Positions 4,103-63,150 of a stretch of 64,000 nt of DNA are shown one piece after another; position 1 is the stretch's first letter; each line of letters begins with the position of its first letter. Position numbers and translations under genes: made by a program. This DNA comes from Planctomycetota bacterium. GTDB lineage: Bacteria; Planctomycetota; Planctomycetia; Planctomycetales; Planctomycetaceae. Location of the stretch: positions 62,001 through 126,000 of the forward strand of contig JAFEBS010000052.1 in assembly GCA_018242525.1 (NCBI GenBank), read 5' to 3'. Under the pieces are notes generated by a model. It did no database searches. It was given only the letters and a program-made list of their open reading frames with translations, and was not told where the DNA came from.

Positions 4103-4312
4103 GTTGTCTCCCTCGCGAGTCCCGGCAGGACGAAAATGGAGGAATGTCTGTTACCACGACGGCAGAAGCTAGCGGGTAAATATGAAGCCCTGCGGAAGTC
4201 TTCATGAAATTCAGGGGGGACTGGCGTTGTTCACGCTCCTGGTTCTCGCCACAATGAGAACCCGGCAAGTCCGGTTTTCCCGTCGCGTGACAAATACACA
4301 GGAGCGACTCTG

Positions 4313-5599: not shown

Positions 5600-5622
5600 A
5601 TCGCTTTCGTGAAAGGACCAGC

Positions 5623-6726: not shown

Positions 6727-6729
6727 GCT

Positions 6730-7299
6730 CTATCGCGGATGGATCTCGGCACCGGTCTGATTGCGCAGCAGATCCAGATTCTTCTCAAAATGCTCCTGGC
6801 TGTGACCCTGCCAGACGACGAATTCACGCCCCTTGGCGGTTTCCAGCCAGAGTTCGTAAGGGCCGCCAATGGCCGGAACCAGGTAGTCAAAGATCCAGCC
6901 ACTGATCCACTGGATCGGGCCAAACAGGATGAAGGTCCAGTATCCCGGCTCCGATCCGCCGTATTTGGTCCCGATGGACATCACTGCCCGCAGCTTGCAC
7001 CGCTGACGCCAGACCGGCACGAAGCCCAGGTACAGTCTGGAGTCCATCCACTCCCCGCGAATCCGTGAAATCCGGAAGGTACCGGTCAGCATCAACGGCA
7101 TCAGGCAGGCCAGAGTTCGCCAGAAGAGGGTCAGTCGCGGTGCCAGCGTGATCGGAATCAGCAGCACGATCAGGATCGGGATGCGAACTCGAAAGTCCAC
7201 CTGTGGCGACAATGTCTGACTGAGGACCGCCCCTTCCAGCGGACCTGTCGGACGATACGTCGAGCGTTTCTGCTGTTTGCCCGTCCGATGGATTTCCAC
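6730..7299 (-). CDS. Hypothetical membrane protein
   Basis: A 189-aa protein of unknown family. The start is GTG at 7299, with AGGAAG about seven bases upstream. Two hydrophobic segments near residues 42-80 (IPILIVLLIPITLA and LACLMPLMLTGTF) suggest membrane helices, followed by 'YWTFILFGPIQWISGWIFDYL' as another membrane or re-entrant segment. The C-terminal part ('PYELWLETAKGREFVVWQG') looks soluble and resembles short planctomycete proteins of unknown function. It is convergent with the WD40 gene, with three bases between the stop codons, and lies 45 bp downstream of pckA on the same strand, so it may be co-transcribed with it. Confidence 0.65.
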   Translation of the reverse strand: MEIHRTGKQQKRSTYRPTGPLEGAVLSQTLSPQVDFRVRIPILIVLLIPITLAPRLTLFWRTLACLMPLMLTGTFRISRIRGEWMDSRLYLGFVPVWRQRCKLRAVMSIGTKYGGSEPGYWTFILFGPIQWISGWIFDYLVPAIGGPYELWLETAKGREFVVWQGHSQEHFEKNLDLLRNQTGAEIHPR

Positions 7300-7344
7300 G
7301 GTGGATCTTCCTGGAAAGTTTCGTCGATGAATGGAATTTGCCTG

Positions 7345-8922
7345 CTAACCGTCCATGGTCCCTTTAAAGGTGCCCCCTTCCTGAAACTGTGCATAGTTCT
7401 CGGCAAACAATTGAGCGAGCTGACGCGCGGTTTCGTCGTAGGCGTCCGGATCGGGCCACGTCTGACGTGGATTCAGTACCGAGGCCGGGACGTTGGGACA
7501 AGCTGTGACAACGTTCAATCCGAAAATCGGATCAGTCTCGGTGGGGACATTATTCAACTGTCCCGCATGAATCGCGTCCACGATGGCACGGGTGTATGCC
7601 AGTTTCATCCGTGAGCCCACGCCGTAGGGCCCACCGCTCCACCCGGTATTGACCAGCCAGACATTGGCCTTGTGAGTTCGGATTTTTTCCGCCAGCAGTT
7701 CCGCGTACTTCCTGGGATGCCAGACCAGGAACGGTCCGCCGAAACAGGGAGAAAACGTGGCCTGAGGTTCCTTCACGCCGACTTCCGTGCCGGCGATCTT
7801 GGCGGTGTATCCATTGATGAAATGATACATCGTCTGTTCGGTCGTCAAGCGACTGACGGGTGGCAGGACTCCAAACGCATCGCAGGTCAGGAAGATGACG
7901 TCGGTGGGATGTCCCGCGACGCAGGGGATGCAGGCATTCGTGACGTATTCGATGGGATAAGCACCACGCGTGTTCTGAGTAATCGACGCGTTGTCGAAAT
8001 CGACATGATGTCGTGCGTCGTCGTAGACCACGTTTTCCAGCACGGCTCCGAAGCGCAGGGCCTGGAAGATCTCTGGCTCGGAATCGCGGGACAGGTAGAT
8101 CGCCTTGGCGTAGCAGCCCCCTTCGATGTTGAAGATCCCTTCATCGGACCAGCAATGTTCGTCGTCACCGATCAATGATCGCTTGGGATCGGCGGACAAA
8201 GTCGTCTTGCCTGTTCCCGACAGTCCGAACAGCACCGAAGACTGCCCGGTCTTCTGATCCACTGTGGCCGAACAGTGCATCGACAGCACGCCCCGCTTCG
8301 GCATCAGGTAGTTCATGATGGTGAAGATCCCCTTCTTCATCTCACCGGCATACTCCGTTCCCAGGATGACGACTTCGCCATTTTCAAAGCTGACGTCGAC
8401 GCTCGTCTTGGAGGTCATCCCTGTGGTGAAGCGATTGGCGGGGAATCGGCCGGCGTTGTAGACGACGAAATCCGGCTGACCGAAATCCGCCAATTGCTCG
8501 TCGGTGGGACGAATCAACATCTGGTGCATGAACAGGGCGTGATACGGTCGCGAGCAGATCACGCGGACCTTGATCTGATACTGGGGATCCCAACCCGCGT
8601 ACCCATCCACCACATACAGGCGGTCGCGGGTGTTCAGATAATCCTTGGCCCGTTCGCGATTGATGAAAAACGAGGCCTGATCCAGCGGGAAGTTCACCGG
8701 ACCCCACCAGATGTCCGACGCGGAGTCTTCGTGTTTCGCCAGACGTTTGTCCTGTGGCGAACGTCCGGTCTTTTCACCGGAATACGCAATCAGTGCTCCG
8801 GTGTCCGAAATCGTGGTTCCGGGCTCGAAGCGGATCGCCTCTTCGTACAGTTTCGAGGGCGCCACGTTGCGCAGAATGGTCTTCGCTGTGATGCCATGCA
8901 TCGACAGGTCAAATTGAGTCAT
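7345..8922 (-). CDS. pckA: Phosphoenolpyruvate carboxykinase (ATP)
   Basis: A 525-aa protein, the usual length for the ATP-dependent class, which interconverts oxaloacetate + ATP with phosphoenolpyruvate + CO2 + ADP in the cytoplasm at the start of gluconeogenesis. The ATG at 8922 has GGAG six bases upstream; a longer in-frame extension lacks family character. The P-loop GLSGTGKTT (residues 233-241, Lys239) and the following 'LIGDDEHCWSDEGIFNIEGG' metal/kinase motif are intact. 'NTGWSGGPYGVGSRMKL' near the C-terminus is also typical. It is divergent from the PQQ-propeller gene, with 127 bp between the starts holding both promoters. Confidence 0.97.
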   Translation of the reverse strand: MTQFDLSMHGITAKTILRNVAPSKLYEEAIRFEPGTTISDTGALIAYSGEKTGRSPQDKRLAKHEDSASDIWWGPVNFPLDQASFFINRERAKDYLNTRDRLYVVDGYAGWDPQYQIKVRVICSRPYHALFMHQMLIRPTDEQLADFGQPDFVVYNAGRFPANRFTTGMTSKTSVDVSFENGEVVILGTEYAGEMKKGIFTIMNYLMPKRGVLSMHCSATVDQKTGQSSVLFGLSGTGKTTLSADPKRSLIGDDEHCWSDEGIFNIEGGCYAKAIYLSRDSEPEIFQALRFGAVLENVVYDDARHHVDFDNASITQNTRGAYPIEYVTNACIPCVAGHPTDVIFLTCDAFGVLPPVSRLTTEQTMYHFINGYTAKIAGTEVGVKEPQATFSPCFGGPFLVWHPRKYAELLAEKIRTHKANVWLVNTGWSGGPYGVGSRMKLAYTRAIVDAIHAGQLNNVPTETDPIFGLNVVTACPNVPASVLNPRQTWPDPDAYDETARQLAQLFAENYAQFQEGGTFKGTMDG

Positions 8923-9049
8923 CAACATCTCCAGATTCGTCGTCAGTCCAGGACAGTGGGAAGCGCTTGTGTCACCGCGTAGGATGCCCGCGTTTGTTGG
9001 TGAACTCAAGATGTCCGGCCGGTCACCTGTCAATTTCGGGAGATGTTTG

Positions 9050-10372
9050 ATGCGAGTCTGGATGGCAGTCGCCTGTCTGGTTTCGATTGCGACAGGCTGT
9101 GGCGGGCGACCCCGGCCGCCGGGACCACCGGTTCCGAAGGCACAGGAGATCTCCGTCAAACCGGATGCGGTCGCGGCAGAATCCCGATTGATTCAGATCT
9201 CGCAGGACGATTGGCCGATGTGGCGAGGTCCGAACGCCGATGGGGTTGCCACCGGAAAACCGGTCCCCACGAAATGGACTGAGACCGAAAATGTCACCTG
9301 GAAGTCCAAGCTGCCCGGTCGCGGTCACTCGTCGCCCATCATCCTGGGTGAGCGGATTTTTCTGGAAACGGCGGACGAGCAGGGTCAAACCCAGTCTGTC
9401 ATTTGCCTGGACCGAAAAGACGGGAGTCTGGCCTGGGACAAGACGCTGTTCCAGGGAAAGCTGGAAACGCGCATGCATCACGAAAACAGTCAGGCCAGCA
9501 GCACGCTGGCCTGCGACGGTGAGCGCCTGTACGCGACGTTCCTGAACGACAACAAGATCTGGCTGACCGCACTGGAACTCGATGGCTCACAGTTGTGGCA
9601 AACCGAAGTCGGCAGTTTCGCATCGAAGTTCGGATATTCCGCTTCCCCGACTCTCTACAAGTCTCTCGTGCTGCTGGCGGCCGACCATGAGCAGGGCGGA
9701 TTCGTCGCCGCCGTGAACCGCGACGAAGGCAGCATCGTGTGGCGCAAGACGCGTCCGGACAAATCCAGTTATGCGTCCCCGCGCGTCGTCACGATCGACG
9801 GTCAGGATCAAATGGTCGTGTGCGGCTGTCGCCTGGTTTCCAGCTTCAATCCGTTGACCGGCGATCAACTGTGGTCGGTTGAAGGGACAGCCGACGCCGG
9901 CGTGGGATTACCGGTCACGACGTCCAACCTGGTGATCGCCAGCGGCGGCTATCCGCAGCAGGAGACGATCGCGCTCAAGGCCGACGGCACCGTCGCCTGG
10001 AGAAAAAACGTCAAATCCTATGTCCCGTCGCTGCTGATCGTGAACCAGTCGCTGTTTATTGTCAGTGATGATGGCATTGCCCACTGCCATGACACAAAGA
10101 CCGGCAATGAACTCTGGAAGCACAGGATTGGCGGCAGATTCCGAGTCTCCCCGGTCGCCTCCGGGGGAAACATCATCACGACGGACATGTCCGGCAAGAC
10201 AACCATCTTCCGGGCGACCCCGGAACAATTTGACCTGGTCGCCGAAAATCAACTGGGAACGGAAGGCTTCGCCAGTCCCGGAATCAGTAAGGGGCAACTG
10301 TTTTTGCGCGTGGCCGATTCCAGCCACGGACCTCGCCAGGAATGGCTGTACTGCATTGGAGAACAGGATTGA
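9050..10372 (+). CDS. Exported PQQ-type beta-propeller lipoprotein
   Basis: A 440-aa protein. I placed the start at the ATG at 9050, which has GGGAG eight bases upstream and opens directly into a signal peptide with a lipobox-like end (LVSIATGC), predicting a lipid-anchored protein. The body is a BamB/PQQ-like propeller: repeated 'VICLDRKDGSLAWDK', 'LTALELDGSQLWQ', 'TIALKADGTVAWRK', 'CHDTKTGNELWKH' blades and an opening 'DWPMWRGPNADGVATGKPVP' segment characteristic of planctomycete PQQ-propeller proteins. It lacks a dehydrogenase domain, so a scaffold or outer-membrane-assembly role is more likely than catalysis. Exact function unknown. Confidence 0.88.
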   Translation: MRVWMAVACLVSIATGCGGRPRPPGPPVPKAQEISVKPDAVAAESRLIQISQDDWPMWRGPNADGVATGKPVPTKWTETENVTWKSKLPGRGHSSPIILGERIFLETADEQGQTQSVICLDRKDGSLAWDKTLFQGKLETRMHHENSQASSTLACDGERLYATFLNDNKIWLTALELDGSQLWQTEVGSFASKFGYSASPTLYKSLVLLAADHEQGGFVAAVNRDEGSIVWRKTRPDKSSYASPRVVTIDGQDQMVVCGCRLVSSFNPLTGDQLWSVEGTADAGVGLPVTTSNLVIASGGYPQQETIALKADGTVAWRKNVKSYVPSLLIVNQSLFIVSDDGIAHCHDTKTGNELWKHRIGGRFRVSPVASGGNIITTDMSGKTTIFRATPEQFDLVAENQLGTEGFASPGISKGQLFLRVADSSHGPRQEWLYCIGEQD

Positions 10373-10468
10373 AAGCAGTAACCAATGCCAGTGTCCCCAA
10401 GGCGGGTCGATGTGGATAGAATCGACCGTGCAATTCTGAACTCGACCATTACCGAATTGACCCCGATC

Positions 10469-11146
10469 ATGAAACTCTGCTGGACCCTGTTCGCCTTCTT
10501 GACGGCATCGGCAGTGACCCAGGCCGCCGACAAGGCCGCGTTTGTCACCGCCCTCGAAGGGAACAAACCACAAACAATCGTCACCTACGGCACCAGCCTG
10601 ACCGCTGGGGGCGAGTGGCCAAAGCAACTGCAGCTGGCCCTCGGTGCTCGGTTCCCAAAACTGGCGACGGTGGTGAACAGCGGATCGGGTGGGCAATGGT
10701 CCACATGGGGTGTCAAGAACCTGGATGAGCGGGTGATTGCCAAACAGCCCGACGTCGTGCTCATCGAATTCTCGATCAACGACGCCTTCCTGCCGTATCA
10801 GACATCGGTCGACGACGCCCGAGCGAACCTGACACACATGATCGATCGCATCCATGCGGTGCGACCGCAGTGCGAAGTCATCTTGATGGTCATGAACCCG
10901 CCGATCGGCGAACACCTGGAACGACGACCGAAGATCGCCGATTATGAACAGATGTACCGCGATTTCGCCGCGAAGAAGAAGCTGCGGCTGATCGATCACG
11001 CTCCCGGTTGGCAAGCGGTCCTGAAAAAGGGCGAGGCCGAATATAGAAAGCTGGTGCCGGACGGAATCCATCCCAACGGAACCGGCTGTGCCGAAATCAT
11101 CACTCCCAATATCCTGCAGGAAATCGGTCTGAAAGTCGCCGACTGA
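10469..11146 (+). CDS. Exported SGNH/GDSL hydrolase
   Basis: A 225-aa esterase-fold protein. The start at 10469 opens directly into a signal peptide (MKLCWTLFAFLTASAVTQAA); a longer in-frame extension has none. SGNH blocks: I 'TYGTSLTAGGEW' (Ser retained, GDSL's Asp replaced by Thr as in the GTSL subgroup), II 'NSGSGGQWS', III 'IEFSINDAF' (Asn present) and V 'DGIHPNGTG' (catalytic Asp-His). It would act outside the cytoplasm on an ester, possibly acetylated glycans given the glycan-related neighbours; that is inference. A second, distinct SGNH gene follows 58 bp downstream. Confidence 0.88.
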   Translation: MKLCWTLFAFLTASAVTQAADKAAFVTALEGNKPQTIVTYGTSLTAGGEWPKQLQLALGARFPKLATVVNSGSGGQWSTWGVKNLDERVIAKQPDVVLIEFSINDAFLPYQTSVDDARANLTHMIDRIHAVRPQCEVILMVMNPPIGEHLERRPKIADYEQMYRDFAAKKKLRLIDHAPGWQAVLKKGEAEYRKLVPDGIHPNGTGCAEIITPNILQEIGLKVAD

Positions 11147-11204
11147 TGTCATCAACATGGCCCGTACCTGAGCACATTTCCGAAATCGAATCCGGAGTCT
11201 CCGC

Positions 11205-11951
11205 ATGATCCGCAGCCCGCTTCTGGTGGTCCTGTTCCTAGCCTGCGCAACCGACGGCGGGCATGTCCAGGCTGAACGATCCGTGGTTCCGCGGCCGCGA
11301 CCATTCGACCCCTACGCGCCCATCGAGGATCAACCGGGGTTGCCACGCGTGTTGTTGATCGGTGACTCCATCTCCGAAGGCTATACAGTGCCAGTCCGAA
11401 AACGGCTGCAGGGGAAGGCGAACGTCCATCGCATCGGGGAAAATGGCGGACCGACGAAAAACGGTGTTGCCAAAATCGACAAATGGCTCGGCACCGACAA
11501 GTGGGATGTCATCCACTTCAACTGGGGGTTGCACGATCTGATGTTCCATCCCGACAAGCAGCCGAATCCCGCGCAGTATGAACGGGATCAACTGGCCCAA
11601 TACGATCAGAATCTGCGAACACTCACTGCCCGGCTGAAGCGGACAGGTGCGAAGTTGATCTGGGCGTCATCGACACCGGTCCCGGAAGAAATGAATTCCC
11701 CGCGCAGTCCGTCTCACCGGTCGCACGTCGTGAAGATTTACAATGAGACCGCCCGGAAGATCATGACGGACAATGACATCTCGATAGACGACCTGTATGC
11801 GCATGTCGAACCGGTCCTGGAGAAAACGCAAAAGCCGCACGATGTTCATTTCACAGTGGACGGATCCGAGTTCCTGGGCAAAAAGGTCGCTGACGAGATC
11901 TCAAGAGTCCTCGTGACCGATCCGCCCTCTCGCCCTGCTGAATCTCGCTGA
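11205..11951 (+). CDS. Exported SGNH/GDSL hydrolase, variant block III
   Basis: A 248-aa protein with an N-terminal signal peptide (MIRSPLLVVLFLACATDGG...). Block I is canonical, 'VLLIGDSISEGYT'. Block III reads 'FNWGLHDL', with His where SGNH enzymes normally have the oxyanion-hole Asn. Block V 'DVHFTVDG' supplies Asp-His. It has little similarity to the upstream SGNH gene outside the motifs, so the pair is not a simple duplication. Probably co-transcribed with it. Substrate unknown. Confidence 0.85.
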   Translation: MIRSPLLVVLFLACATDGGHVQAERSVVPRPRPFDPYAPIEDQPGLPRVLLIGDSISEGYTVPVRKRLQGKANVHRIGENGGPTKNGVAKIDKWLGTDKWDVIHFNWGLHDLMFHPDKQPNPAQYERDQLAQYDQNLRTLTARLKRTGAKLIWASSTPVPEEMNSPRSPSHRSHVVKIYNETARKIMTDNDISIDDLYAHVEPVLEKTQKPHDVHFTVDGSEFLGKKVADEISRVLVTDPPSRPAESR

Positions 11952-12017
11952 GGATTGAGAACCCATGCGGCGCACAGGTCTGCCAGGCGATTGTTGCAGA
12001 AGGATTGAACCTTGCGG

Positions 12018-13124
12018 CTACGAACTCAGGACGGGTAGCCGGATATTGCGAATGTCTCCGCTGTCATTGTTGGAGTCCTCCGGCGGCTCATGGGGCGGAA
12101 CCGTTTCTCGCCCGGTACCCAGGACGGTCAGCTTCACCACTCGCGAGAAGGCTGGCAGGGAACCGAACGTTGCGGCAACAGCCGTGGCTTCGTACCCGCA
12201 GTGAACCATGCAGTCAGCACACTTGGGATTACCACTGGCACGGCCGTACTTTGACCAGTCGGTTGTATCGAGCAGTTCCTGAAACGTTTCGCAGTACCCT
12301 TCGTTCAGCAGGTAGCAGGGCTTCTGCCAGCCGAACAGGTTGTAGGCGGGCATGCCCCACGGGGTGCATTCCAGGTCCCACTTCCCTTTCAAGAATTCCA
12401 GGAACAGCGGCGACAGGTTGAAGCGCCAGGACTTCTTCGCGTTTCCCAGGATCCGCTGGAACAGGTTCACCGTCTGATTGCGCTGCAGGAACAATTCCTG
12501 GCTGGGTGCCTTTTCATATTGGTATCCCGGCGAAATCATCATTCCTTCGACGCCGTAACCCATCAGCGTGTCGAACATTTCCCGCATCGCATTCGGGTCG
12601 GCGTTGTTGTAAACGGTCGTGTTCGTGGTGACGCGGAAACCCTTCGCCACGGCCAGCTTGATTGCGCTGATGGCAACGTCGTACACCCCTTCGCGGCAAA
12701 CGGCAAAATCATGCTCTTCCCTGGGTCCGTCCAAGTGTACCGAGAAAGACAGGTACTTTGAGGGCTGGAATCGGTCGATATGTTTTTCCAGCAGGATTGC
12801 GTTCGTACAAAGGTAGACATACTTCTTACGGGCGACCAGGCCGGCAACGATTTCGTCGATCTGAGGATGCAACAGGGGTTCGCCGCCGGGGATCGACACG
12901 AGCGGAGCACCGCATTCGTCCACCGCCTTGAAGCACTGTTCGGGGGTCAGATTCTGCTTCAGGATGTCGGCCGGATATTGGATCTTGCCACAGCCGGCAC
13001 ACGCCAGATTGCAGCGGAAAAGGGGCTCCAGCATCAGTACCAGCGGATACCGTTTGATCCCACGCAACCGCTTGCCGAGTACATAACTGGCCACCGTCCA
13101 CATCTGGGAAATGGGCACACCCAT
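12018..13124 (-). CDS. hpnH: Adenosyl-hopene transferase, radical SAM
   Basis: A 368-aa radical SAM enzyme. The ATG at 13124 has GGGGAG seven bases upstream. The cluster motif is CNLACAGC (Cys38, Cys42, Cys45), the HpnH-type CX3CX2C spacing, after '[12 protein letters not shown]'. Other family marks: '[14 protein letters not shown]', '[13 protein letters not shown]', '[12 protein letters not shown]', and a C-terminal Cys set ('[12 protein letters not shown]'). HpnH adds the adenosyl group of SAM to a hopene to begin C35 hopanoid synthesis, so the cell is expected to make extended hopanoids. No squalene-hopene cyclase or other hpn gene lies in the window. Confidence 0.95.
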
Positions 13125-13310
13125 CAATCAACTCCCCTGTTTTCCGTCATCCAGACCGCCCAACCGGGGTGAAGGTGTACCAGTTTTCCACGGATCTGTC
13201 AGCATCGGCACACCCAAGTTCTTTGCCGACACACTTTTCTTTCGATGAGTTCTTGCTTATCCAATGCATTTTGCCGGGCGAAAATTGAGGATTCAGGATA
13301 CCCTTCTGCG

Positions 13311-14489
13311 ATGCGCGTCACGGAGATTACCGCTTATCACGTTCGGATCCCCCTCCGAAAACCAGTTCGACATGCCTCGCACGCCCGCATCGATACCGAA
13401 TCGCTGGTCGTGCGCTGCCGCCTGGAGAATGGAGTCATAGGCTGGGGCGAGGGGTTGCCGCGCGAATATGTCACGGGCGAGACAATTGACGACGCCTGGA
13501 AGTTGCTGCAGACGAGCGACCTGCCGCGGCAGCTTGGCGGGCGCTGGACGGGGATTCCAGACGCCATTGCCGCACTCGATCAATTCCAGGTGACCCGACC
13601 CGCTGCTGACGAGCGCGATTGCTTCGGGAACTCTGTCCGCTGTGCGATCGAACTGAGCGTGCTGGACGCAGTCTGCCGAACGCAGCAGCAGCCACTTTCG
13701 GTGGTCACGACGCTGATACCAGAAACCGTGGCGATTCGATCCAGCCAGGATTTCGTCAGATACAGTGCTGTCTTCACTGCGATGAGCATCTATGCCCAGG
13801 TCAGACGCGCCGTGATGTGTTGGTACTTCGGATTCAAGGCGGCCAAGGTCAAGACCGGCGTCGAAGGAGTCGACGACCGTCAGATGCTGCGGCGATTGCG
13901 TTTTCTGTTGGGGCGCACGTTTGATCTGCGGCTGGATGCCAACGAATCCTGGACGTGCGCGAATCTGGAAGCCAAGCTCGCCCCGCTGCTGCCGTTCGGT
14001 ATCTCGTCGGTCGAACAGCCCGTCCCGCACGAGCAGGTCGATGGCCTGGCAGGCCTGCGGGGCCGGATCGGTGTTCCGCTGATGCTGGACGAATCGCTGT
14101 GCAGCCTGGTCGACGGCCGACGTGCCGTGGAACAGGGAACGTGTGACCTGTTCAACATCCGGCTGTCCAAATGTGGCGGGTTTGTGAACTCATTGCGGCT
14201 GGCCGCGCTGGCTCAGCAGGCGGGACTCGGTTACCAGCTCGGCTGCCAGGTGGGTGAGACGGGCATCCTGTCCGCCGCCGGCCGACACTTTGCCACATCG
14301 GTGTCGAACATTCGCTTCCTGGAAGGAAGCTATGATCGGTTCCTGGTGCGCGAGTGGCTGACCCGCGAAGATATCACATTTGGCCGTGGCGGGATCGCCC
14401 CGGCCCTGACAGGAGCGGGCCTGGGAGTCACCGTGGACGAGTCGGCTGTCGCACGAGTCGCCCAGCGCGAATTGAGAATCGAAGTTTGA
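13311..14489 (+). CDS. Enolase-superfamily enzyme (mandelate racemase/muconate lactonizing-like)
   Basis: A 392-aa protein. I chose the ATG at 13311 (MRVTEITAYHVRIPL), which matches the usual family N-terminus; upstream codons look unrelated. The N-terminal capping domain includes 'WGEGLPREYVTGET'. The barrel carries the KxK base pair (Lys179 and Lys181 in AAKVKTG), Asp209 in 'LDANESWT', Glu in 'VEQPV', Asp-Glu in 'MLDES' and a second Lys in 'IRLSKCGG', so the active site appears complete. The layout is the MLE/dipeptide-epimerase type rather than mandelate racemase. Substrate cannot be predicted. It is divergent from hpnH. Confidence 0.85.
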   Translation: MRVTEITAYHVRIPLRKPVRHASHARIDTESLVVRCRLENGVIGWGEGLPREYVTGETIDDAWKLLQTSDLPRQLGGRWTGIPDAIAALDQFQVTRPAADERDCFGNSVRCAIELSVLDAVCRTQQQPLSVVTTLIPETVAIRSSQDFVRYSAVFTAMSIYAQVRRAVMCWYFGFKAAKVKTGVEGVDDRQMLRRLRFLLGRTFDLRLDANESWTCANLEAKLAPLLPFGISSVEQPVPHEQVDGLAGLRGRIGVPLMLDESLCSLVDGRRAVEQGTCDLFNIRLSKCGGFVNSLRLAALAQQAGLGYQLGCQVGETGILSAAGRHFATSVSNIRFLEGSYDRFLVREWLTREDITFGRGGIAPALTGAGLGVTVDESAVARVAQRELRIEV

Positions 14490-56372: not shown

Positions 56373-56376
56373 CAAG

Positions 56377-56418
56377 TACGCCCGCCAGGATTCGAACCTG
56401 GGACCGACGGATTAGAAA
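56377..56418 (-). pseudogene. 3' half of a tRNA-Arg(TCT), probable attachment-site remnant
   Basis: On the minus strand this runs from the anticodon loop TTTCTAA (anticodon TCT) through TCCGT, the T-arm CCAGG-TTCGAAT-CCTGG, and the acceptor strand CGGGCGT with discriminator A. CCA is not encoded. The 5' neighbour of the loop (GGGCA) cannot pair with TCCGT, and no D-arm or 5' acceptor strand follows. The gene is thus a 3' half cut at the anticodon loop, a standard crossover point for tyrosine integrases. Confidence 0.72.
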
Positions 56419-56436
56419 TGCCCCGTTACCTTTCGG

Positions 56437-56551: not shown

Positions 56552-57087
56552 CTTATGCTCATCACCGTCTGCTGACCGCTGTCGAACGGAATCGTATGGA
56601 CTTCAGCCACGGTTCCGGTCATAGCATTCATCTCCGACAAACACAACCTGCCAGGTGCACAAGGCGACCCGATCAAGTCGGAGATCCGACTCGACCAACG
56701 AACATCTTTTGCATCGTGTCGTCAGCCTCTTTGATCGGATGGATGCCCTCTATTCACGAAACTCGCCGATTTGGCAATCGCGAGTTCTGAAACCCGTTGA
56801 CGATGTCGATCTGAATTGCGATACTGCGAACGCGTAAGGACGCCGAGGTGACTCCTGTACCTCATTGCACACTTGCATTGGGAGGCCGCCAAAAGGAGGC
56901 GGTTCGCAGTAGAGTTATCATTGAGCAGGATCGCTCACCCTCGCTTGACATGCTGGACCCCGACAGCATTCCGCGAGATTTCCGGTCAAACCGATCGGCA
57001 GTCTTGCGGTGTGCGCTGTCCTGAATGGTAAGGCATCGTACCAGAAAGACTGCCTCAACACCCACTCATGTGTTTGGAGGTAGTTTC

Positions 57088-57393
57088 GTGACGAATCGCA
57101 CGTCATCCATCAGTTGCTCCGTGGAAAGCCTGATTCCACTTGCCATCCCCGTTGAAGCATTGCGGCCGTTAATTGCCGCAGCGCTCGAATCAACAGGCAT
57201 CCTTCCAGGTTGGCCCCTGGGTAGAGTCGCACTTCAGGAAGGTGAAGCAGCCGAGTGCATTGGCGTAAAGCCGCATGTACTTCGCGATGCACGTATACGC
57301 CTGCGTCTGCCGCATTCTCTCATCGGCCGGACGGTGACCTACAACGCAGAGCAGCTCCGAGTCGCGCTGAACCGGATGGCGATCAATTCGTGA
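57088..57393 (+). CDS. Small HTH/excisionase-like protein
   Basis: A 101-aa protein. The GTG at 57088 has GGAGG seven bases upstream. The C-terminal half ('AAECIGVKPHVLRDARIRLR ...' then 'TVTYNAEQLRVALNRMA') resembles a winged or MerR/excisionase-like DNA-binding helix set; the N-terminal half ('LIPLAIPVEALRPLIAAALE') is helical. First gene of the island after the tRNA fragment, a usual place for excision or regulatory genes. Family assignment tentative. Confidence 0.55.
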   Translation: MTNRTSSISCSVESLIPLAIPVEALRPLIAAALESTGILPGWPLGRVALQEGEAAECIGVKPHVLRDARIRLRLPHSLIGRTVTYNAEQLRVALNRMAINS

Positions 57394-57484
57394 GACATTT
57401 TGTTGCCTCAAAGTCTTGCACACTCAAATCCCACGATAACCCTACCGTCTGCACATGGTACGGGGAGAACTTCAGGAAACGGTT

Positions 57485-58381
57485 ATGCCCAAAAAACAAA
57501 ATCAGAAAAACACACAGAGCGACGTCACTCCAAAGGAAATTCGTTCAGACAGGTGGCTTCGCAACCAACACGGAACCTACTTAATCACGTATCCAAAACC
57601 TGGAACGTATGAATTGAAGCCGATCGCCAATCACGGAGTTCACATCAGAACAATTCTATTTTTACTGCATACGCATGGCTGCGAAGTCCAGTATGTTTTG
57701 CAGTTTTTCACTCCACACGGTCATGTGGAATTGCGAGTTCGTCATGAAGACTTGGCCGACGAGAGGGCTTTTCTCAATGTCGCTCCTCCTGGATTTGCGC
57801 TGACATACGTGGCTCACGCCTTCACACTCCTCAGGGAATGCCTGATGGGTGACTTGGTCCATGCAACACGAGAGGCCACTCTCACAGTTCTGGGCTGGTA
57901 CATTTGGCAGAAGAAGCCTGTTTTCGCGCACGCTGGCGGAGTGATTCGTTCCGAAGTGGATTCGTCTGGAATCAAACTGGAAACGGGTTTCGGAACAGTA
58001 AAAAACAGTTCTTTGGTTGACATCGATCAATTGTGTTCCGATGTTCCGATTCTGGCCGGTCAACACAGGCCCATCGAGAAATTGCACGTACAGGTTCCTG
58101 AGCAATTCCGCAAATATCGCTTACACACCCCGACTTCCGAAGCTGAATCCAGAGAGGCAATGCGAGCAGTGTTCGACCTCTTATCGCTCGGCAAGCCTGA
58201 TGTCACGTATATCTGTGTGTCCGCCATATTTGTGACAGTAATTCGTGATCCACGATTCGCGCTCTTCCTTTACGGGGAGACCTGCAACTGCTGGCCAAGG
58301 TTGTCGATCTCGCCCATACCTGGATTTACCAGCAGGCGAATTGAGCGCTGTCCGAACAACGGAATCGATGACTGCCGGTGA
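57485..58381 (+). pseudogene. DUF927-like ATPase gene, broken before Walker A
   Basis: 298 codons from the ATG at 57485 (AGGAA upstream). The middle and C-terminal parts follow DUF927-type primase/helicase-associated ATPases: 'GWYIWQKKPVFAHAGGVI', 'LHVQVPEQFRKYRLHTPTSE', 'AVFDLLSLGKPDVTY' and 'FALFLYGE', just where 'GPTGAGKS' should follow. Instead the frame reads TCNCWPRLS and soon ends. In another frame the DNA continues 'DLQLLAKVVDLAHTWIYQQA' to a stop, a plausible coding tail. This suggests a deletion or frameshift that removed the ATPase core. The family link is by pattern only. Confidence 0.55.
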
Positions 58382-58452: not shown

Positions 58453-59523
58453 ATGGAATCAGCATTCCAAACGCTCGTTGAACGGGGCCGAAAGGATCTC
58501 CGGACAAAGTACTTGCGTGGAGGCCAAGTCCAGGCGGAGCCGCTGTTCGACGCGGAAGTAAAGTTGATTCAAAGCCTGAACCTGGACGAGTCCCTGGTCC
58601 GGTTGTCCGAATACAGCGATCAGCTGCAACAGCGGGACGTGTACTTTCACGCGATCGGTTCCGGGTGTTCATCCGTCGTCCTGTTTGTGCTCGGAATATC
58701 CCGTGTCAATCCGATCGAACATGACACGTATTTCCAGCATTTCTGGCAAACGTCCAGCGGTGAGTCACCAATTCTTCAATTGGTTGTGGACTCCATCGGA
58801 AAACCTGGTTTCGGTAACGTTCCCCAGCCTTTCTGCGTGTCCGCCCACTCCATGACTGCCTTGGAAGCGATCCCCAATCGGGTGGAATCACTTATCGGGC
58901 CGATCAAGACAACCAAGCTGGATCAGGCCACGCTCGCATCGCTTCAGGCTGGCGATACAAACGATGTCTTCCAGTTCCACAGCGAGCGGGCCAAATGGCT
59001 GCTCAGCCAGATTCGACCGACGAACATCGAGGAACTGGCTGTTGTCACCGCCTTGGAACAACTCAGTCACAACCACCCGGACGTTGTGTTCAGTTACCTG
59101 GAACAATACCAAGAGATTCTCACAACCCGTTACGTGACGGGTCGCCGTGCTTCTTCGGAAGCGAAACATCGGCTCCCCATCCTATTTCAAGAAATGCTGA
59201 TGAGCCTGTTGCGGCATCTGGCAAAGTTGCCCTGGGACGTGACCTATCCATTCATTCGGGATGCAGCGAAAGGTCGGGTAGACGATCAACACGAACACTG
59301 GCGGACTGCCTTGGGGCTGACGAATGACCGTTCTTCCGAGGATGCCAAAAGGCTGTTACGAACAATCGCCGAGTCCAGCCGCTGGGCCGTCTGTCGGGCA
59401 CATCACATTGCGAATGCCCTGACGAGTTTCAAGGCCGCCTATTATCGGACTCATCACCGGGTGGAATTCGAGAACGTTCGAACACAAATCATCGAGTCCA
59501 CAAGCCACGGAACAACATCGTGA
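58453..59523 (+). CDS. Miniature DnaE-like (C-family DNA polymerase alpha-subunit) protein lacking catalytic aspartates
   Basis: A 356-aa protein. I chose the ATG at 58453 (GGGGGA upstream). It follows DnaE's palm-fingers in order: 'GSGCSSVVLFVLGISRVNP' (residues 69-87; DnaE GRGSAAGSLVAYxLGITxVxP), 'DVFQFHSERAKWLLSQIRP' (171-189; DnaE GxFQxxSxGM), 'FQEMLMSLLRHLAKLP' (245-260; DnaE YQEQVMxIxxxLAG) and 'CRAHHIANALTSFKAAYYRT' (314-333; DnaE NKSHAAAYxxxxYQTAYLKA). Where DnaE has MPDIDIDF and FDFLGL with its three aspartates, this protein has 'SPILQLVVDSIG' and 'FCVSAHSM'. There is no PHP, beta-binding or OB domain. Likely non-catalytic. The stop overlaps the next start (GTGA). Confidence 0.62.
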   Translation: MESAFQTLVERGRKDLRTKYLRGGQVQAEPLFDAEVKLIQSLNLDESLVRLSEYSDQLQQRDVYFHAIGSGCSSVVLFVLGISRVNPIEHDTYFQHFWQTSSGESPILQLVVDSIGKPGFGNVPQPFCVSAHSMTALEAIPNRVESLIGPIKTTKLDQATLASLQAGDTNDVFQFHSERAKWLLSQIRPTNIEELAVVTALEQLSHNHPDVVFSYLEQYQEILTTRYVTGRRASSEAKHRLPILFQEMLMSLLRHLAKLPWDVTYPFIRDAAKGRVDDQHEHWRTALGLTNDRSSEDAKRLLRTIAESSRWAVCRAHHIANALTSFKAAYYRTHHRVEFENVRTQIIESTSHGTTS

Positions 59524-60092
59524 CTGACGCAACTTCAGAACCACGCAAGACGAAGCCGCGCAAGAAGGCCGCACGGACTTTATCCAAGTCGAGTGGTCCA
59601 AAACCAGAAAAAAAGGATCATCCAGATCGCGACCGTCGAGTACGGCAGGCGGATCGTCTGGCGCGAGTTTTGCGCGTACTCGAACTGATTCAAAGCCGTG
59701 GACGTTGGACAACGAAAGCCATCGCCGAAGAAATCGAGTGTTCGGAACGAACCGTTTATCGTGACCTGGATGTGCTCCGGTTCCTGCAATCAATCGCCGA
59801 GATCAAGACGGTGGGACATCTGATCGACTCAGATCTCTCCCACGATGTGTCTTGGGATACGGCCCGTCAGGAACTCCGCTGCCAGGCAGAGGCTGAGTAC
59901 TTCGACATCCCGCGTGGCCGCATCGTGTGGGACACCGTGCATCGAGCCGGGATTCTGTATCACGGCAACGAAACGCCTGTAGAAGCATTCGAAGAACTGG
60001 CCAGACTGTTCCGTCTGCCAAGGTGGGAGGCCCGGCTGGATGAACACTACCTGACCGGAGAGGCCCTGGAAGAGTTCTATCGGTTGGACTGA
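59520..60092 (+). CDS. HTH (DeoR/WYL-type N-domain) protein coupled to the DnaE-like gene
   Basis: A 190-aa protein. Its GTG start at 59520 overlaps the previous TGA, so the two are translationally coupled. It has a Lys/Arg-rich N-terminus (about 1-45), then HTH_11-type 'VLRVLELIQSRGRWTTKAIA' and 'IECSERTVYRDLDVL' (about 50-95). The C-terminal region ('LIDSDLSHDV ... FRLPRWEARLDEHYL') matches no ligand domain I recognise. It shares the HTH pattern with the gene at 62749. Likely DNA-binding regulator or DNA-targeting partner of the DnaE-like protein. Confidence 0.68.
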   Translation: MTDATSEPRKTKPRKKAARTLSKSSGPKPEKKDHPDRDRRVRQADRLARVLRVLELIQSRGRWTTKAIAEEIECSERTVYRDLDVLRFLQSIAEIKTVGHLIDSDLSHDVSWDTARQELRCQAEAEYFDIPRGRIVWDTVHRAGILYHGNETPVEAFEELARLFRLPRWEARLDEHYLTGEALEEFYRLD

Positions 60093-60148
60093 AAGTCCAT
60101 TGAACAACGCCCCTGCGCAAAACCCCATCCCTGCCAAGGAATTCCACA

Positions 60149-60343
60149 ATGAGCTTTCACCGCGAACTTTACACGTTCACTCATGTCCTGTTCATGACAG
60201 GCGCCATTGCACTGACCATGACCGGGATGTACGCCGCACGACACCAGCATGGGTCGATTCGCGAACTGTCCCGAATGGACGCCAAGTCGGCCTGCCTCAC
60301 TCTTAACAAACGAATCGCGACAAATCTCGCGCAGATGGCGTGA
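60149..60343 (+). CDS. Small membrane protein
   Basis: A 64-aa protein. The ATG at 60149 has AAGGAA eight bases upstream. One hydrophobic segment 'FTHVLFMTGAIALTMTGMY' with basic residues after it suggests a single membrane helix. No family recognised. It lies between the HTH gene and the metallo-hydrolase gene on the same strand. Confidence 0.55.
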   Translation: MSFHRELYTFTHVLFMTGAIALTMTGMYAARHQHGSIRELSRMDAKSACLTLNKRIATNLAQMA

Positions 60344-60388
60344 TCACCTTTTCACTCGCCGAGAGCACCAGAAAGGCCGGACAACACC

Positions 60389-61693
60389 ATGCAAATCACA
60401 ATCCACCGAGGAACTCACGAGGTCGGTGGAAGCTGTATCGAGATCGCAACAGATCAAAGCCGGGTGATCCTCGACGTGGGAATGCCCCTGTTCAACGAAG
60501 ATCGCGAGCCCTACGACTCCGCAGCATTGAGACGACAATCGCGTGAGGAACTCAGGACCTCGGGCGTGCTCCCCAAAGTCCCCGGACTGTTTGACGAGAC
60601 TGGTCCGAGTCCCGACGCCATCCTGCTCTCACACGCCCATGAAGATCACACAGGGTTGCTGCGGCATTCTCCGAATGATGTTCCGATCTATGCCAGTGTG
60701 GGGACCAGCAAGATGATGCTGGTTGGCTCAAAGTTTGCCGGGCAGCCTTCGCTTCCCAGTGATCGACATCATGAACTCCCGTCCGGAAACACGGTACAGA
60801 TCGGGGATTTCAAAGTAACCGCGTTTTCGGTCGATCATTCCATCTATGGCGCCCAGGCTTTCCTGATCGATGCGGATGGCAAGTCGATCCTGTACTCTGG
60901 CGACCTGCGCATGCACGGCCGTAAACCAGGGATGCACAGGGCACTCATCGAGGCGGTTCAGCACCGTTCCATCGACGTGTTCCTGATGGAGGGAACCCAC
61001 ATCAATCATCGGGATCATCGAAATCAGAACGAATACCAACTCGAACGGGAGATCGTCAGGCACGTTCAATCGGCAACAGGATTGGTGCTGGCCTCCTTCT
61101 CTCCTCAACACGTGGACCGGCTGGTCGGCTTCTACAGGGCCACGGTCAAAGCTGGTCGAATCTTTGTGGTCGACGCCTACACAGCCTTTGTGATGTATTT
61201 GATCGCCTCAGAGATCCCTGTTCCCCGGCCGGAATCTTCGCCCGAAGTGAAAGTCTTTTTCCCAAAATACTTCGAGGAGAATTACCGGAAGAAACAACTC
61301 GAAAAGCATTTTCTCTTGATGTCCCCGGCCAGGATTGGAATGGACGAAATCCGCTCAAATCCATCTCGATATGTGATGCTCTTCCGACCCAGCATGCTGG
61401 ACAGCGATTTCGGCGGAGACATTCCAGATCACTCCCGCTGTCTCTATTCCCGCTGGGAAGGCTATCTCGACCGACCTGACTGGCGACTGGTCAATGCGGC
61501 TTTGGAAAACGTCCACGGTGACCTGATTGAAGTCCATACGAGCGGTCACATCGTCTACGACGATATTATCGAATTGGTGGGACTGATTCAGGCGAAGACG
61601 GTAATTCCGGTTCACACTTTTGAACCAGAGATGTTCATGGAGTTCTCATCCAGAGTAAGAGTCTTGGCGGATGGCGAACGAATGGTGGTGTAA
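60389..61693 (+). CDS. Metallo-beta-lactamase-fold hydrolase, RNase J/beta-CASP-like
   Basis: A 434-aa protein with the metal-binding motifs of the MBL fold: SHAHEDH (His82, His84, Asp86, His87), a His in 'VDHSIYGA' and Asp in 'LYSGDLRMHG'. The C-terminal 'HTSGHIVYDD' and 'VIPVHTFEPEMF' match beta-CASP motifs used by RNase J/CPSF-type nucleases. The beta-CASP insert lies about residues 190-360. Expected to cut or trim RNA (or DNA); shorter than RNase J. Last of the rightward island run, convergent with the PD-(D/E)XK gene. Confidence 0.8.
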   Translation: MQITIHRGTHEVGGSCIEIATDQSRVILDVGMPLFNEDREPYDSAALRRQSREELRTSGVLPKVPGLFDETGPSPDAILLSHAHEDHTGLLRHSPNDVPIYASVGTSKMMLVGSKFAGQPSLPSDRHHELPSGNTVQIGDFKVTAFSVDHSIYGAQAFLIDADGKSILYSGDLRMHGRKPGMHRALIEAVQHRSIDVFLMEGTHINHRDHRNQNEYQLEREIVRHVQSATGLVLASFSPQHVDRLVGFYRATVKAGRIFVVDAYTAFVMYLIASEIPVPRPESSPEVKVFFPKYFEENYRKKQLEKHFLLMSPARIGMDEIRSNPSRYVMLFRPSMLDSDFGGDIPDHSRCLYSRWEGYLDRPDWRLVNAALENVHGDLIEVHTSGHIVYDDIIELVGLIQAKTVIPVHTFEPEMFMEFSSRVRVLADGERMVV

Positions 61694-61729: not shown

Positions 61730-62566
61730 TCACCAGACCGAATGGTCACCGTGACCGAAGGCAATCGTGAATTCGCTCAGGCTGGTTGAAGACATCGGAT
61801 TCTGTACCGCGACAATCCGGCGAACGACATTCGAAACTGGACAGTCTTGCGCCATCAGGAACGAAGACATCGAACTGGTGAGAGCCAAAAACTCTTGGCT
61901 GATCTGATCCGTCGGGTATCTAAGCAGGATTAGGCAGATGTCGACCCCTGGCCCCAGTTGACTTTCTGCAAATCGGCCGGGAAAAGCCTTCTGTAGACGA
62001 GTCAGTTGTGATGGTGTCGAAAGTTCGATGGCATACATCAGGCTCTGAATCAAGCCGAAGAATGGATTCACATCCGTGTCGGCCTTGATCTCACCCACAA
62101 TGGGCGTCCGATCCTGGAAGTTGCTGAGCAGTAGATCCATTCCACCAGCCCCTGAGGATTGACCGGATTCCCCGTTTTCGAGCTCGGATTTTGTCGTTCG
62201 GAGTGGGTTAATCTGGTAGTCAACGTACTGAAAATCAAGATGTGGCGCTGCTTCAACCGTACCAACTTTGCGGTCGCTTCCAACGAGTTGTTGGACGAGC
62301 ACATTCGCCAAATGCCTGTTGTCAAGCATCCGGTCGGACAGCCTGCCTTCAACTCCGCGATTGTGGAAGCCCTCGTTGCGGTTGTCGTAAAGTGAACAGT
62401 GCTCTCGACTCTCAATGGCCAACTTCGCCAACTGCTCTGGCCGTCGACAAAGTTCCCGGGCGACCGCCAAATGAAAGTCCTCACTGGGGAAGTCACGGAG
62501 CAGTCGGTACAAATGGCGAAGTGCCGTGATTGGAATCAGGCGTTGTAGCGATGATTGGCGTCTCAT
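61730..62566 (-). CDS. PD-(D/E)XK nuclease-like protein
   Basis: A 278-aa protein. I chose the ATG at 62566; a TTG-initiated extension is possible. The motif 'GGMDLLLSN...PIVGEIKAD' has Asp144 followed 15 residues later by Glu159-Ile-Lys161, the PD-(D/E)XK nuclease signature, and 'NPFFGLIQSLMYAIELSTPS' resembles the following helix in such folds. No family name recognised; the N-terminal 100 residues ('LIPITALRHLYRLLRDFPSE') are unassigned. It is divergent from an HTH gene whose operator candidate lies in between. Confidence 0.6.
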   Translation of the reverse strand: MRRQSSLQRLIPITALRHLYRLLRDFPSEDFHLAVARELCRRPEQLAKLAIESREHCSLYDNRNEGFHNRGVEGRLSDRMLDNRHLANVLVQQLVGSDRKVGTVEAAPHLDFQYVDYQINPLRTTKSELENGESGQSSGAGGMDLLLSNFQDRTPIVGEIKADTDVNPFFGLIQSLMYAIELSTPSQLTRLQKAFPGRFAESQLGPGVDICLILLRYPTDQISQEFLALTSSMSSFLMAQDCPVSNVVRRIVAVQNPMSSTSLSEFTIAFGHGDHSVW

Positions 62567-62646
62567 CCTTCCATCATGACTATGCGCTGTGCCAACAGTG
62601 GGGCACCGCAAGTCTGCGCGAAAATCCGCGTTCCAGCCAGTGGCAA

Positions 62647-62748: not shown

Positions 62749-63150
62749 ATGGACAAGAAGCAACGAACTGATTCCGAGCGCCGTCTGCGCCAATGCGAAC
62801 GGCTGAGCCATTTGCTCAAAACACTCCATCTCATCATGGGCAAGGGACGGTGGGATGCCGACGGGTTGGCGGAGGAACTCGAATGCTCCCGCCGCACGGT
62901 ATATCGTCTGCTGCAAACGCTCTCGATGGCTGGTGTCCCGTGGTACTTTGACAAATCTTGCCGAGCCTACCGCGTCCGACCTGGCTTCAAATTCCCGGTC
63001 ATCGAATTAACCACTTCCACAGATGTGGGTGTCGCGCACACCTCGAGCGAACTGAAGCCGCTTGTCGAAAAGCTGATCGCTGACGGCGAGGCGGTTATCG
63101 CGACGCTAAATCGGTTCCTGAAGACTCTTCGCGAAGTCCAAGAGGGCTGA
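62749..63150 (+). CDS. Second HTH protein, paralogue of the gene at 59520
   Basis: A 133-aa protein. 'LKTLHLIMGKGRWDADGLA' and 'LECSRRTVYRLLQTL' form the same HTH_11 pattern as the gene at 59520 (R-x-RQ-x2-RL..., GRW, ECSxRTVYR). The tail 'YRVRPGFKF' is a typical post-HTH strand seen in WYL-group regulators, but the WYL domain itself is missing. Likely autoregulates through the palindrome upstream. Confidence 0.7.
   Translation: MDKKQRTDSERRLRQCERLSHLLKTLHLIMGKGRWDADGLAEELECSRRTVYRLLQTLSMAGVPWYFDKSCRAYRVRPGFKFPVIELTTSTDVGVAHTSSELKPLVEKLIADGEAVIATLNRFLKTLREVQEG

What the first reader, a model, noticed from the sequence alone, without database searches (positions are those of the whole stretch)
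58453..61693. Candidate new system: mini-DnaE, coupled HTH, small membrane protein and beta-CASP nuclease
A 356-aa protein keeps DnaE palm-fingers motifs in order but lacks the three catalytic aspartates, PHP and clamp-binding regions. Its stop overlaps the start of a basic HTH protein, and a small membrane protein and an RNase J-like nuclease follow on the same strand. A dead polymerase fold could bind primer-template or clamp-loader partners and steer the nuclease. I know no described defence or replication system with this set.
Basis: partly seen in the sequence, partly recalled or inferred. Interest (0 to 1): 0.78.

Follow-up and report, generated by a model that had tools for sequence, protein, structure and literature searches.

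The report
Dead mini-polymerase in a mobile nuclease cluster
A short, catalytically dead relative of the bacterial replication polymerase sits beside a nuclease gene in a small mobile DNA element of a planctomycete; the pairing recurs in related bacteria, suggesting a real but functionally untested gene module.

Summary
The 356-aa protein is a conserved palm–fingers remnant of DnaE, under purifying selection, without catalytic aspartates, thumb, PHP or clamp-binding parts. It was found in 9 of 397 class genomes (10 copies, one broken); all 8 copies with enough downstream DNA have the beta-CASP gene 0.9–6.7 kb downstream, with an HTH/WYL regulator between. Corrections: in this genome the "HTH" and "small membrane" ORFs are deletion chimeras (the WYL domain is lost), and the cluster is cargo of a ~9.65 kb integrase-bearing element flanked by two tRNA 3' ends. 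The beta-CASP gene is the wider core: in many phyla its neighbour is a PD-(D/E)XK-like protein, in the window the overlooked minus-strand ORF 61730–62611. Six planctomycete loci have the nuclease without mini-DnaE, so mini-DnaE is an accessory. A Butyrivibrio plasmid also combines WYL, PD-(D/E)XK-like protein, beta-CASP and two DnaE-like proteins. No searched library names this set, and my paper searches listed none. Defence is my preferred reading; the test for known defence genes nearby was inconclusive, and a replication or maintenance role is a serious rival.

The parts
56374..56419 (-). Left end of the element: 3' part of a tRNA-Arg(TCT)-like gene (probable att site); matching right end at window-equivalent 66026-66069
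   Evidence: identical blocks of 18, 13 and 10 bp with L017:10026-10069; the right end is an Rfam tRNA hit, 31.8 bits, cut by the contig end, while the left piece did not reach Rfam's threshold; G+C falls from ~0.60 to ~0.54 from here on
57025..57393 (+). 122-aa ORF of unknown function inside the element
   Evidence: no Pfam match
57455..58381 (+). 308-aa ORF of unknown function; its downstream part overlaps, in another frame, a remnant of the conserved ~110-aa gene
   Evidence: no Pfam or PHROG family
58273..58338 (+). Remnant (22 codons) of the conserved ~110-aa protein that precedes mini-DnaE in relatives
   Evidence: 82-90% identity over 21-23 aa
58453..59523 (+). Mini-DnaE: inactive DnaE palm-fingers protein, 356 aa
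59520..60092 (+). HTH chimera: N-terminal HTH of the WYL regulator (to about residue 88) fused to the C-terminal 106 aa of the conserved ~150-aa protein; WYL domain lost
   Evidence: 85-88% identity to WYL regulators at residues 22-88, 75-77% to the ~150-aa protein at 85-190
60149..60343 (+). 64-aa chimera: first 34 aa of a 132-163-aa membrane protein plus the C-terminus of a 270-aa protein
   Evidence: 88% over 34 aa to L023; C-terminal match to the 270-aa proteins of L019 and L040
60389..61693 (+). Beta-CASP metallo-beta-lactamase nuclease, 434 aa, motifs intact
   Evidence: Pfam; alignment A1; nearest solved 2az4 and RNase J
61730..62611 (-). PD-(D/E)XK-like protein, 293 aa, conserved partner next to the nuclease
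   Evidence: 64% identical copy in the same place in L022, both with MDLLLSN...VGEIK; motif and place only, no significant profile match
62749..63150 (+). Short HTH_11 protein, recurrent between the nuclease and the integrase in these elements
   Evidence: Pfam; present in L021, L022, L024, L043, L079
63292..64000 (+). Start of a 305-aa ORF (runs past the window); outside the window follow a 77-aa ORF (window-equivalent 64387-64620, no family, excisionase-like by size and place only) and a tyrosine integrase (~64659-65951)
   Evidence: integrase Pfam 3e-14, PHROG 2.8e-27

Best explanation
The cluster is cargo of tRNA-targeted integrative elements of Planctomycetes (shown by integrase and tRNA ends). 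Its core is a beta-CASP nuclease with a PD-(D/E)XK-like partner, together with a WYL-type regulator in planctomycete relatives (shown by gene order and domains). In one lineage a catalytically dead DnaE palm-fingers protein was added directly before the WYL regulator, with overlapping stop and start (shown). Inferred: the module is element-borne immunity or inter-element conflict. Mini-DnaE has kept a DNA-engaging fold but not synthesis, and would recognise primer-template or replication-fork DNA of an invader, or occupy the invader's or host's replisome. It would act with the co-made WYL protein to release expression, and the two nucleases would then degrade nucleic acid. In the window copy mini-DnaE and both nucleases are full length but the WYL domain is deleted, so this copy is probably mis-regulated or on its way out.
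For: Linkage: all 8 mini-DnaE copies with enough flank have WYL/HTH and then beta-CASP on the same strand; an independent MAG, L082, has the same order up to its contig edge. Coupling: stop and start overlap by 1 or 4 nt in the window, L019, L020, L022, L024, L026 (starts as called mechanically). Mobility: in 7 of 14 distinct loci scanned for tRNAs a Pfam phage integrase lies 0-0.9 kb from a tRNA gene. Partner: 33 of 80 immediate beta-CASP neighbours against 13 of 340 genes at least 3 away carry D-x(7-16)-ExK; the model of the largest partner family aligns mainly with PD-(D/E)XK nucleases, several from defence systems (EndoMS Z 8.3, SduA 7.4, HamA 5.4). Regulator: WYL/WCX domains; BrxR-family WYL regulators co-localise with defence systems (PMC9122601, passages read). 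Selection: dN/dS of mini-DnaE 0.19-0.34 in three pairs. Independent case: Butyrivibrio plasmid pCY186 with WYL, PD-(D/E)XK-like protein, beta-CASP and two DnaE-like proteins.
Against: No function was tested. The defence-gene test was inconclusive: 74 neighbours hit 80 PADLOC models and 74 control genes hit 9, but one reverse transcriptase alone accounts for 19, the lists are capped, and the number of proteins hit cannot be read from the answers. Six planctomycete loci (L043, L046, L121-L124) and five more distant ones of the phylum (L125-L129, flanks of varied length) have the nuclease without mini-DnaE, so mini-DnaE is not needed for the module. One of the ten mini-DnaE copies (G326) is broken. 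A residue on the triphosphate side is eroded (E. coli R709 position I/V, numbering recalled), so dNTP binding is doubtful. In Butyrivibrio the DnaE-like proteins sit with dnaX, DnaA and PolC, which fits replication as well.
Confidence: 0.42

Rival explanations
1. Element housekeeping: the dead DnaE proteins are replisome-docking or replication-control factors of the mobile element, and the nucleases process its DNA or RNA; no immunity is involved.
For: In Butyrivibrio pCY186 the two DnaE-like proteins lie among dnaX, DnaA/Hda and PolC genes. Several planctomycete elements also carry DUF932 and a Cas4/RecB-like exonuclease (PHROG exonuclease 1.2e-15) upstream, as in recombination modules.
Against: The beta-CASP/PD-(D/E)XK pair occurs in many loci where the mini-DnaE profile finds no DnaE-like gene nearby. 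None of the window-element proteins scanned was recognised as a replication initiator.
Confidence: 0.3
2. Hitch-hiking: mini-DnaE and the nuclease module are functionally unrelated cargo that share the same element lineage.
For: Nuclease without mini-DnaE in L043, L046 and L121-L124. Mini-DnaE evolves faster than its neighbours (dN/dS 0.34 against 0.11 for WYL and 0.23 for the nuclease in the same pair).
Against: 8 of 8 testable mini-DnaE copies are linked to the nuclease, at 25-45% mini-DnaE identity and at different tRNA sites. The Butyrivibrio plasmid shows the combination outside this element family.
Confidence: 0.23
3. Mini-DnaE is merely a fragment of a degraded full-length dnaE.
For: It lacks PHP, thumb and C-terminal domains and the catalytic Asp; other ORFs of this copy are truncated; the G326 copy is broken.
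Against: Ten full copies (nine of the survey's, plus L082) form one clade (100/98) apart from the planctomycete, phage and other DnaE rows (long-branch warnings); purifying selection; the genome has a separate DnaE frame of 1195 aa and a second of 1070 aa.
Confidence: 0.03

Closest known systems
DnaE / Pol III alpha (C-family DNA polymerase)
   Same: palm N-part and fingers fold and motifs; the 16 listed entries with Z of 22 or more are all C-family polymerases
   Different: no catalytic Asp, no thumb, PHP, clamp-binding, OB or C-terminal domains; 356 aa instead of 1000 or more
ImuB and other inactivated polymerases
   Same: catalytically dead polymerase fold kept under selection as an accessory
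   Different: ImuB is Y-family and works with ImuA/DnaE2 (PMC12926913, passages). In the passages and the one section of that survey that I read no inactivated short C-family group is described
RNase J / beta-CASP nucleases, incl. EF2904 (2az4)
   Same: MBL plus beta-CASP motifs; 2az4 E 9e-30, RNase J from 1.7e-13
   Different: 434 aa, far below the NCBIfam RNase J family cut-off (61.7 against 400 bits); mobile, often paired with a PD-(D/E)XK-like protein
Type VII CRISPR Cas14 (beta-CASP effector)
   Same: beta-CASP nuclease in immunity; weak profile hit 2.8e-11
   Different: score 42.5 against a cut-off of 800; no CRISPR effector gene recognised among the window proteins scanned
BrxR/CapW WYL regulators of defence systems
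   Same: HTH + WYL + WCX regulator in a nuclease operon
   Different: follows mini-DnaE within the operon; WYL domain deleted in the window copy

Membership tests
C-family DNA polymerase (functional) | palm-fingers fold | tested here: met
   Pfam, VIA Z 30.2 over 344 residues
C-family DNA polymerase (functional) | three catalytic Asp | tested here: not met
   profile alignment to 2hnh; alignment of 9 members
C-family DNA polymerase (functional) | thumb, PHP and C-terminal clamp/OB domains | tested here: not met
   no matched counterpart of E. coli 1-282, 406-527 and beyond 795
RNase J | curated family score (TIGR00649) | tested here: not met
   61.7 bits against cut-off 400
Beta-CASP MBL superfamily | HxHxDH, later His/Asp and C-terminal His motifs | tested here: met
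   H82 H84 D86 H87 H150 D172 H387 H409 invariant in 8; RMMBL domain just under its cut-off (20.5 against 21.6)
Known anti-phage systems (PADLOC-DB 2.0.0) | profile match of mini-DnaE, nuclease or partner | tested here: not met
   no match for the window's mini-DnaE, nuclease or 293-aa partner; the HTH ORF hits generic WYL/CARF/HTH models and mad1 (0.012) through its HTH; two partners of other loci hit PDC-S11 weakly, 1.3e-4 and 0.031
PD-(D/E)XK nuclease superfamily (partner family c1) | D...ExK active site in an alpha-beta core | tested here: met
   D157 invariant, D170, E185, K187 nearly so in 13; model pLDDT 66, best Z 8.3 EndoMS
PD-(D/E)XK nuclease superfamily (window ORF 61730-62611) | D...ExK active site in an alpha-beta core | tested here: inconclusive
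   motif present and conserved in L022; profile comparison P 0.82; no fold predicted
BrxR-type WYL regulator | HTH + WYL + WCX | tested here: met
   relative L026; not met in the window copy, whose WYL part is deleted
tRNA-targeted integrative element | integrase and duplicated tRNA 3' end | tested here: met
   intact tRNA not seen because the contig ends there
Anti-phage defence system | protection against phage | not testable with these tools
   no experiment

The most novel reading that the evidence does not exclude
An undescribed, widely spread, mobile immune or inter-element conflict system built on a beta-CASP nuclease plus a PD-(D/E)XK protein, in which dead C-family polymerases were recruited at least twice (Planctomycetes elements and a Butyrivibrio plasmid) as sensors or blockers of the replication fork, coupled to a WYL regulator.
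Probability: 0.25. Interest if true: 0.85.

Novelty: new variant of a known kind. Interest (0 to 1): 0.62.

Why it matters
Dead polymerases kept as accessories are known mainly from the Y family (ImuB). A conserved dead form of the replicase itself, carried by mobile elements and co-made with a WYL regulator beside two nucleases, would be a new way for elements to sense or interfere with replication. The wider beta-CASP plus PD-(D/E)XK pairing, found in many phyla and on plasmids and named in none of the libraries searched, can be tested directly in laboratory strains.

Tried and rejected
Single-sequence pattern scans with mini-DnaE found no relative in genome contigs or viral contigs; the alignment scan of viral contigs gave one weak locus, and the Butyrivibrio 480-aa protein found 13 loci there whose DnaE frames are 521-1320 aa. 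Mini-DnaE in phage records: the best hits lie in the 765-aa half of a split phage polymerase. Using a relative (L045) as query over 392 phylum genomes gave hits in 251, the listed ones being full-length or long DnaE frames, so it could not count mini-DnaE. The 9-of-397 count comes from the window sequence as query, so more diverged copies may be missed. PADLOC scan of neighbours against a control set was inconclusive. Foldseek of the PD-(D/E)XK model found nothing at E<=0.001; only the VIA second look was informative, and a best Z of about 8 is also reached by models without a clear match (note). Profile comparison of the window's 293-aa ORF with the c1 partner family was not significant (P 0.82); c1 against c16 and c7 gave P 0.0044 and 0.0004. 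The Butyrivibrio 480-aa protein does not group with the planctomycete clade, but both are long branches, so common or separate origin is open. In the motif count five of 56 loci without a greedy beta-CASP call were dropped (L061, L064, L071, L072, L082); the motif was chosen after looking; one counted hit (L017, in the HTH chimera) is spurious, while the partners in L017 and L022 are missed by the pattern. Of six plasmid partners looked at with the same pattern, two matched clearly (Rhizobium, one Sphingomonas), two matched doubtfully, one more matched by eye outside the pattern (Butyrivibrio), one looked spurious (Cereibacter). The p150 profile (10 of 56 loci, 0 of 36 controls) was trained on four of those ten. 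L047 has only 1.5 kb before the nuclease, so it says nothing about mini-DnaE there. Paper searches listed no description of the set; only listings and abstract starts were seen except PMC9122601 (passages) and PMC12926913 (passages and section 14).
Full report
1. What is there. The window lies in a planctomycete-like genome (G000, contig C47, 62001-126000 of 128069; the named close relatives are Planctomycetes). From about 56.37 kb the G+C content falls from ~0.60 to ~0.54. The left boundary at 56374-56419 and the last bases of the contig (L017:10026-10069, window-equivalent 66026-66069) are both 3' ends of a tRNA-Arg(TCT)-like gene, sharing identical blocks of 18, 13 and 10 bp; the right one is an Rfam tRNA match truncated by the contig end, the left one did not reach Rfam's threshold. 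Just inside the right end lie a 77-aa ORF without a family and a tyrosine integrase (Pfam 3e-14). The finding is therefore cargo of a ~9.65 kb integrative element. Of 14 distinct loci scanned for tRNAs, seven (L021, L022, L023, L026, L041, L043, L046) have a Pfam phage integrase overlapping or within 0.9 kb of a tRNA gene, of four anticodons.

2. Mini-DnaE. The 356-aa protein scores above Pfam's gathering cut-offs for the DnaE finger and alpha domains. The profile of nine family members matches E. coli Pol III alpha at 316-405 and 528-785 (E 1.3e-33), so the thumb and the rest of the palm between these stretches are missing and the catalytic Asp positions hold other residues (E. coli numbering recalled). 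The AlphaFold2 model (mean pLDDT 82, pTM 0.84) aligns over 344 of 356 residues with 2hnh, Z 30.2 at 3.0 A; all 16 listed entries with Z of 22 or more are C-family polymerases, and the next row is 3.9. Within the family G69, S74, C314, H317 and H318 (window numbering) are among 17 invariant residues. The fingers position matching R709 is I or V, so dNTP binding is doubtful. It is not a recent dnaE fragment: ten full copies form one clade (100/98) apart from planctomycete, phage and other DnaE (with long-branch warnings), and dN/dS is 0.20, 0.34 and 0.19 in three pairs, against 0.07-0.11 for the WYL gene. The genome also has a DnaE frame of 1195 aa and a second of 1070 aa.

3. Conservation of the neighbourhood. 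In 397 genomes of the class (own included), 12 had a hit at E<=1e-12; three of these are only full-length DnaE, leaving 9 genomes and 10 copies of mini-DnaE. The G326 copy, on a 3.8-kb contig, is broken: its parts lie in two frames and run into the WYL frame. All ten copies are followed by an HTH or WYL gene; two (G258, G326) are cut by contig ends, and all 8 others have the beta-CASP gene on the same strand, 0.9 to 6.7 kb downstream (the longest gap contains a transposase-like ORF). L082, a further MAG, agrees up to its contig edge. Fuller relatives add, upstream, DUF932, a 188-aa protein, a Cas4/RecB-like PD-(D/E)XK exonuclease, a highly conserved 258-aa protein and a ~110-aa protein, and, downstream, a lipoprotein-like and a membrane protein.

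4. The window copy is reduced. The "HTH" ORF joins the first ~88 residues of the WYL regulator to the C-terminal 106 residues of a separate ~150-aa protein; the 64-aa ORF joins the first 34 residues of the membrane protein to the end of a 270-aa protein; a 22-codon remnant of the ~110-aa gene lies at 58273-58338. Mini-DnaE, the beta-CASP gene and the 293-aa partner are full length against their relatives.

5. The nuclease and its partner. The beta-CASP protein keeps its metal-binding motifs in 8 relatives; nearest solved structures are 2az4 (EF2904, deposited as hypothetical) and RNase J. A pattern scan of genome contigs (84,980 species) gave 142 relatives, of which 80 loci were kept; 13 plasmid records and three phage records also carry relatives. 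Its neighbours belong to several families that share D-x(n)-ExK: 33 of 80 immediate neighbours against 13 of 340 genes three or more away (Fisher 5e-17; 51 of 56 loci used, motif chosen post hoc). The largest family has D157 invariant and D170, E185, K187 nearly so in 13 members. Its model (pLDDT 66) has a beta-beta-beta-alpha-beta core and aligns best with EndoMS, Upx, SduA, Can2 and similar nucleases. In the window the partner is the convergent 293-aa ORF (64% identical in L022, same motif); its profile comparison with the main family is not significant. None of the partners scanned reaches a Pfam cut-off; PADLOC gave only weak PDC-S11 hits to two of them.

6. Without mini-DnaE, and with it elsewhere. 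Planctomycete loci L121-L124 have WYL, nuclease and (all but L123) a partner of family c1 but no mini-DnaE; L043 and L046 have the nuclease with other cargo and no mini-DnaE. Five further loci of the phylum (L125-L129) have none either, with flanks of varied length; L047 has too little upstream DNA to tell. L043 and an Ochrobactrum plasmid both place an AddAB-like pair (my naming; 26-29% identical to each other) near the nuclease. The Butyrivibrio proteoclasticus plasmid pCY186 has WYL, a 277-aa protein with the ExK motif, the nuclease, dnaX, a 480-aa DnaE-like protein with a degenerate catalytic motif that ends at the same boundary as mini-DnaE, and a 332-aa protein with DnaE-like palm motifs (read by eye). 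A Myxococcales MAG (L075) has an 811-aa DnaE with intact PDFDID that stops at the same boundary, followed by a 487-aa protein with an ExK-like motif (by eye) and the nuclease, with overlapping ORFs; this polymerase looks active, so it is a parallel, not a member.

7. Reading. Shown: a conserved inactive DnaE derivative, overlapping a WYL regulator gene and linked to a beta-CASP nuclease with a PD-(D/E)XK-like partner on integrative elements. Inferred: an immunity or conflict role with mini-DnaE as sensor or replisome blocker. The Butyrivibrio context keeps a replication-maintenance role open. The PADLOC neighbour scan could not decide. BrxR homologues co-localise with known defence systems in 48% of cases (PMC9122601, abstract passage), which supports defence only indirectly.

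8. Novelty. In PADLOC-DB 2.0.0, Pfam, NCBIfam and PHROGs the proteins hit only generic parents (DNA polymerase, MBL or RNase J family, HTH/WYL, exonuclease, DUF932, integrase) or nothing; no model names the set. Eight paper searches listed no paper on it. The library holds only open-licence papers, so prior description elsewhere is possible.

Noticed in passing
L161 (NC_014390.1) 3773-13345: Butyrivibrio plasmid pCY186 carries two DnaE-like proteins (480 and 332 aa) among dnaX, DnaA and PolC genes, next to WYL, a PD-(D/E)XK-like protein and the beta-CASP nuclease.
   Followed up: partly
L075 6109-11266: Myxococcales operon of an 811-aa DnaE (PDFDID intact, ends after the fingers), a 487-aa protein with an ExK-like motif and the beta-CASP nuclease, with overlapping ORFs.
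   Followed up: partly
L043 3116-8937; L179 9159-13221: An AddAB-like nuclease-helicase pair sits near the beta-CASP gene in a Schlesneria MAG and an Ochrobactrum plasmid.
   Followed up: partly
L021 7160-7648, L059 11137-11754, L162 5516-5992, L179 5558-5953: A ~130-160-aa protein with a PRGR(I/V) motif recurs near the beta-CASP gene in planctomycetes and proteobacteria (10 of 56 loci, 0 of 36 controls; four of the ten were training rows); its C-terminus is fused to the HTH in the window.
   Followed up: partly
L047 1509-6729: A beta-CASP relative (52% identity) lies directly before a full-length dnaE in a Planctomyces MAG.
   Followed up: no
G100: L021 and L022: One genome carries two copies of the element type, at tRNA-Arg and tRNA-Phe, with mini-DnaE copies 80% identical.
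   Followed up: partly
L019 11742-12518 and homologues: A 258-aa protein of no known family is extremely conserved upstream of mini-DnaE (96.9% identical between L019 and L020, dN/dS 0.07).
   Followed up: no
L180 5024-9215: On a Cereibacter plasmid the beta-CASP gene sits among TniB/TniQ and Tn3 transposon genes, as if transposon cargo.
   Followed up: no
L027 (G326) 1076-2392: A broken mini-DnaE copy, split over two frames and running into the WYL frame, on a 3.8-kb contig.
   Followed up: no
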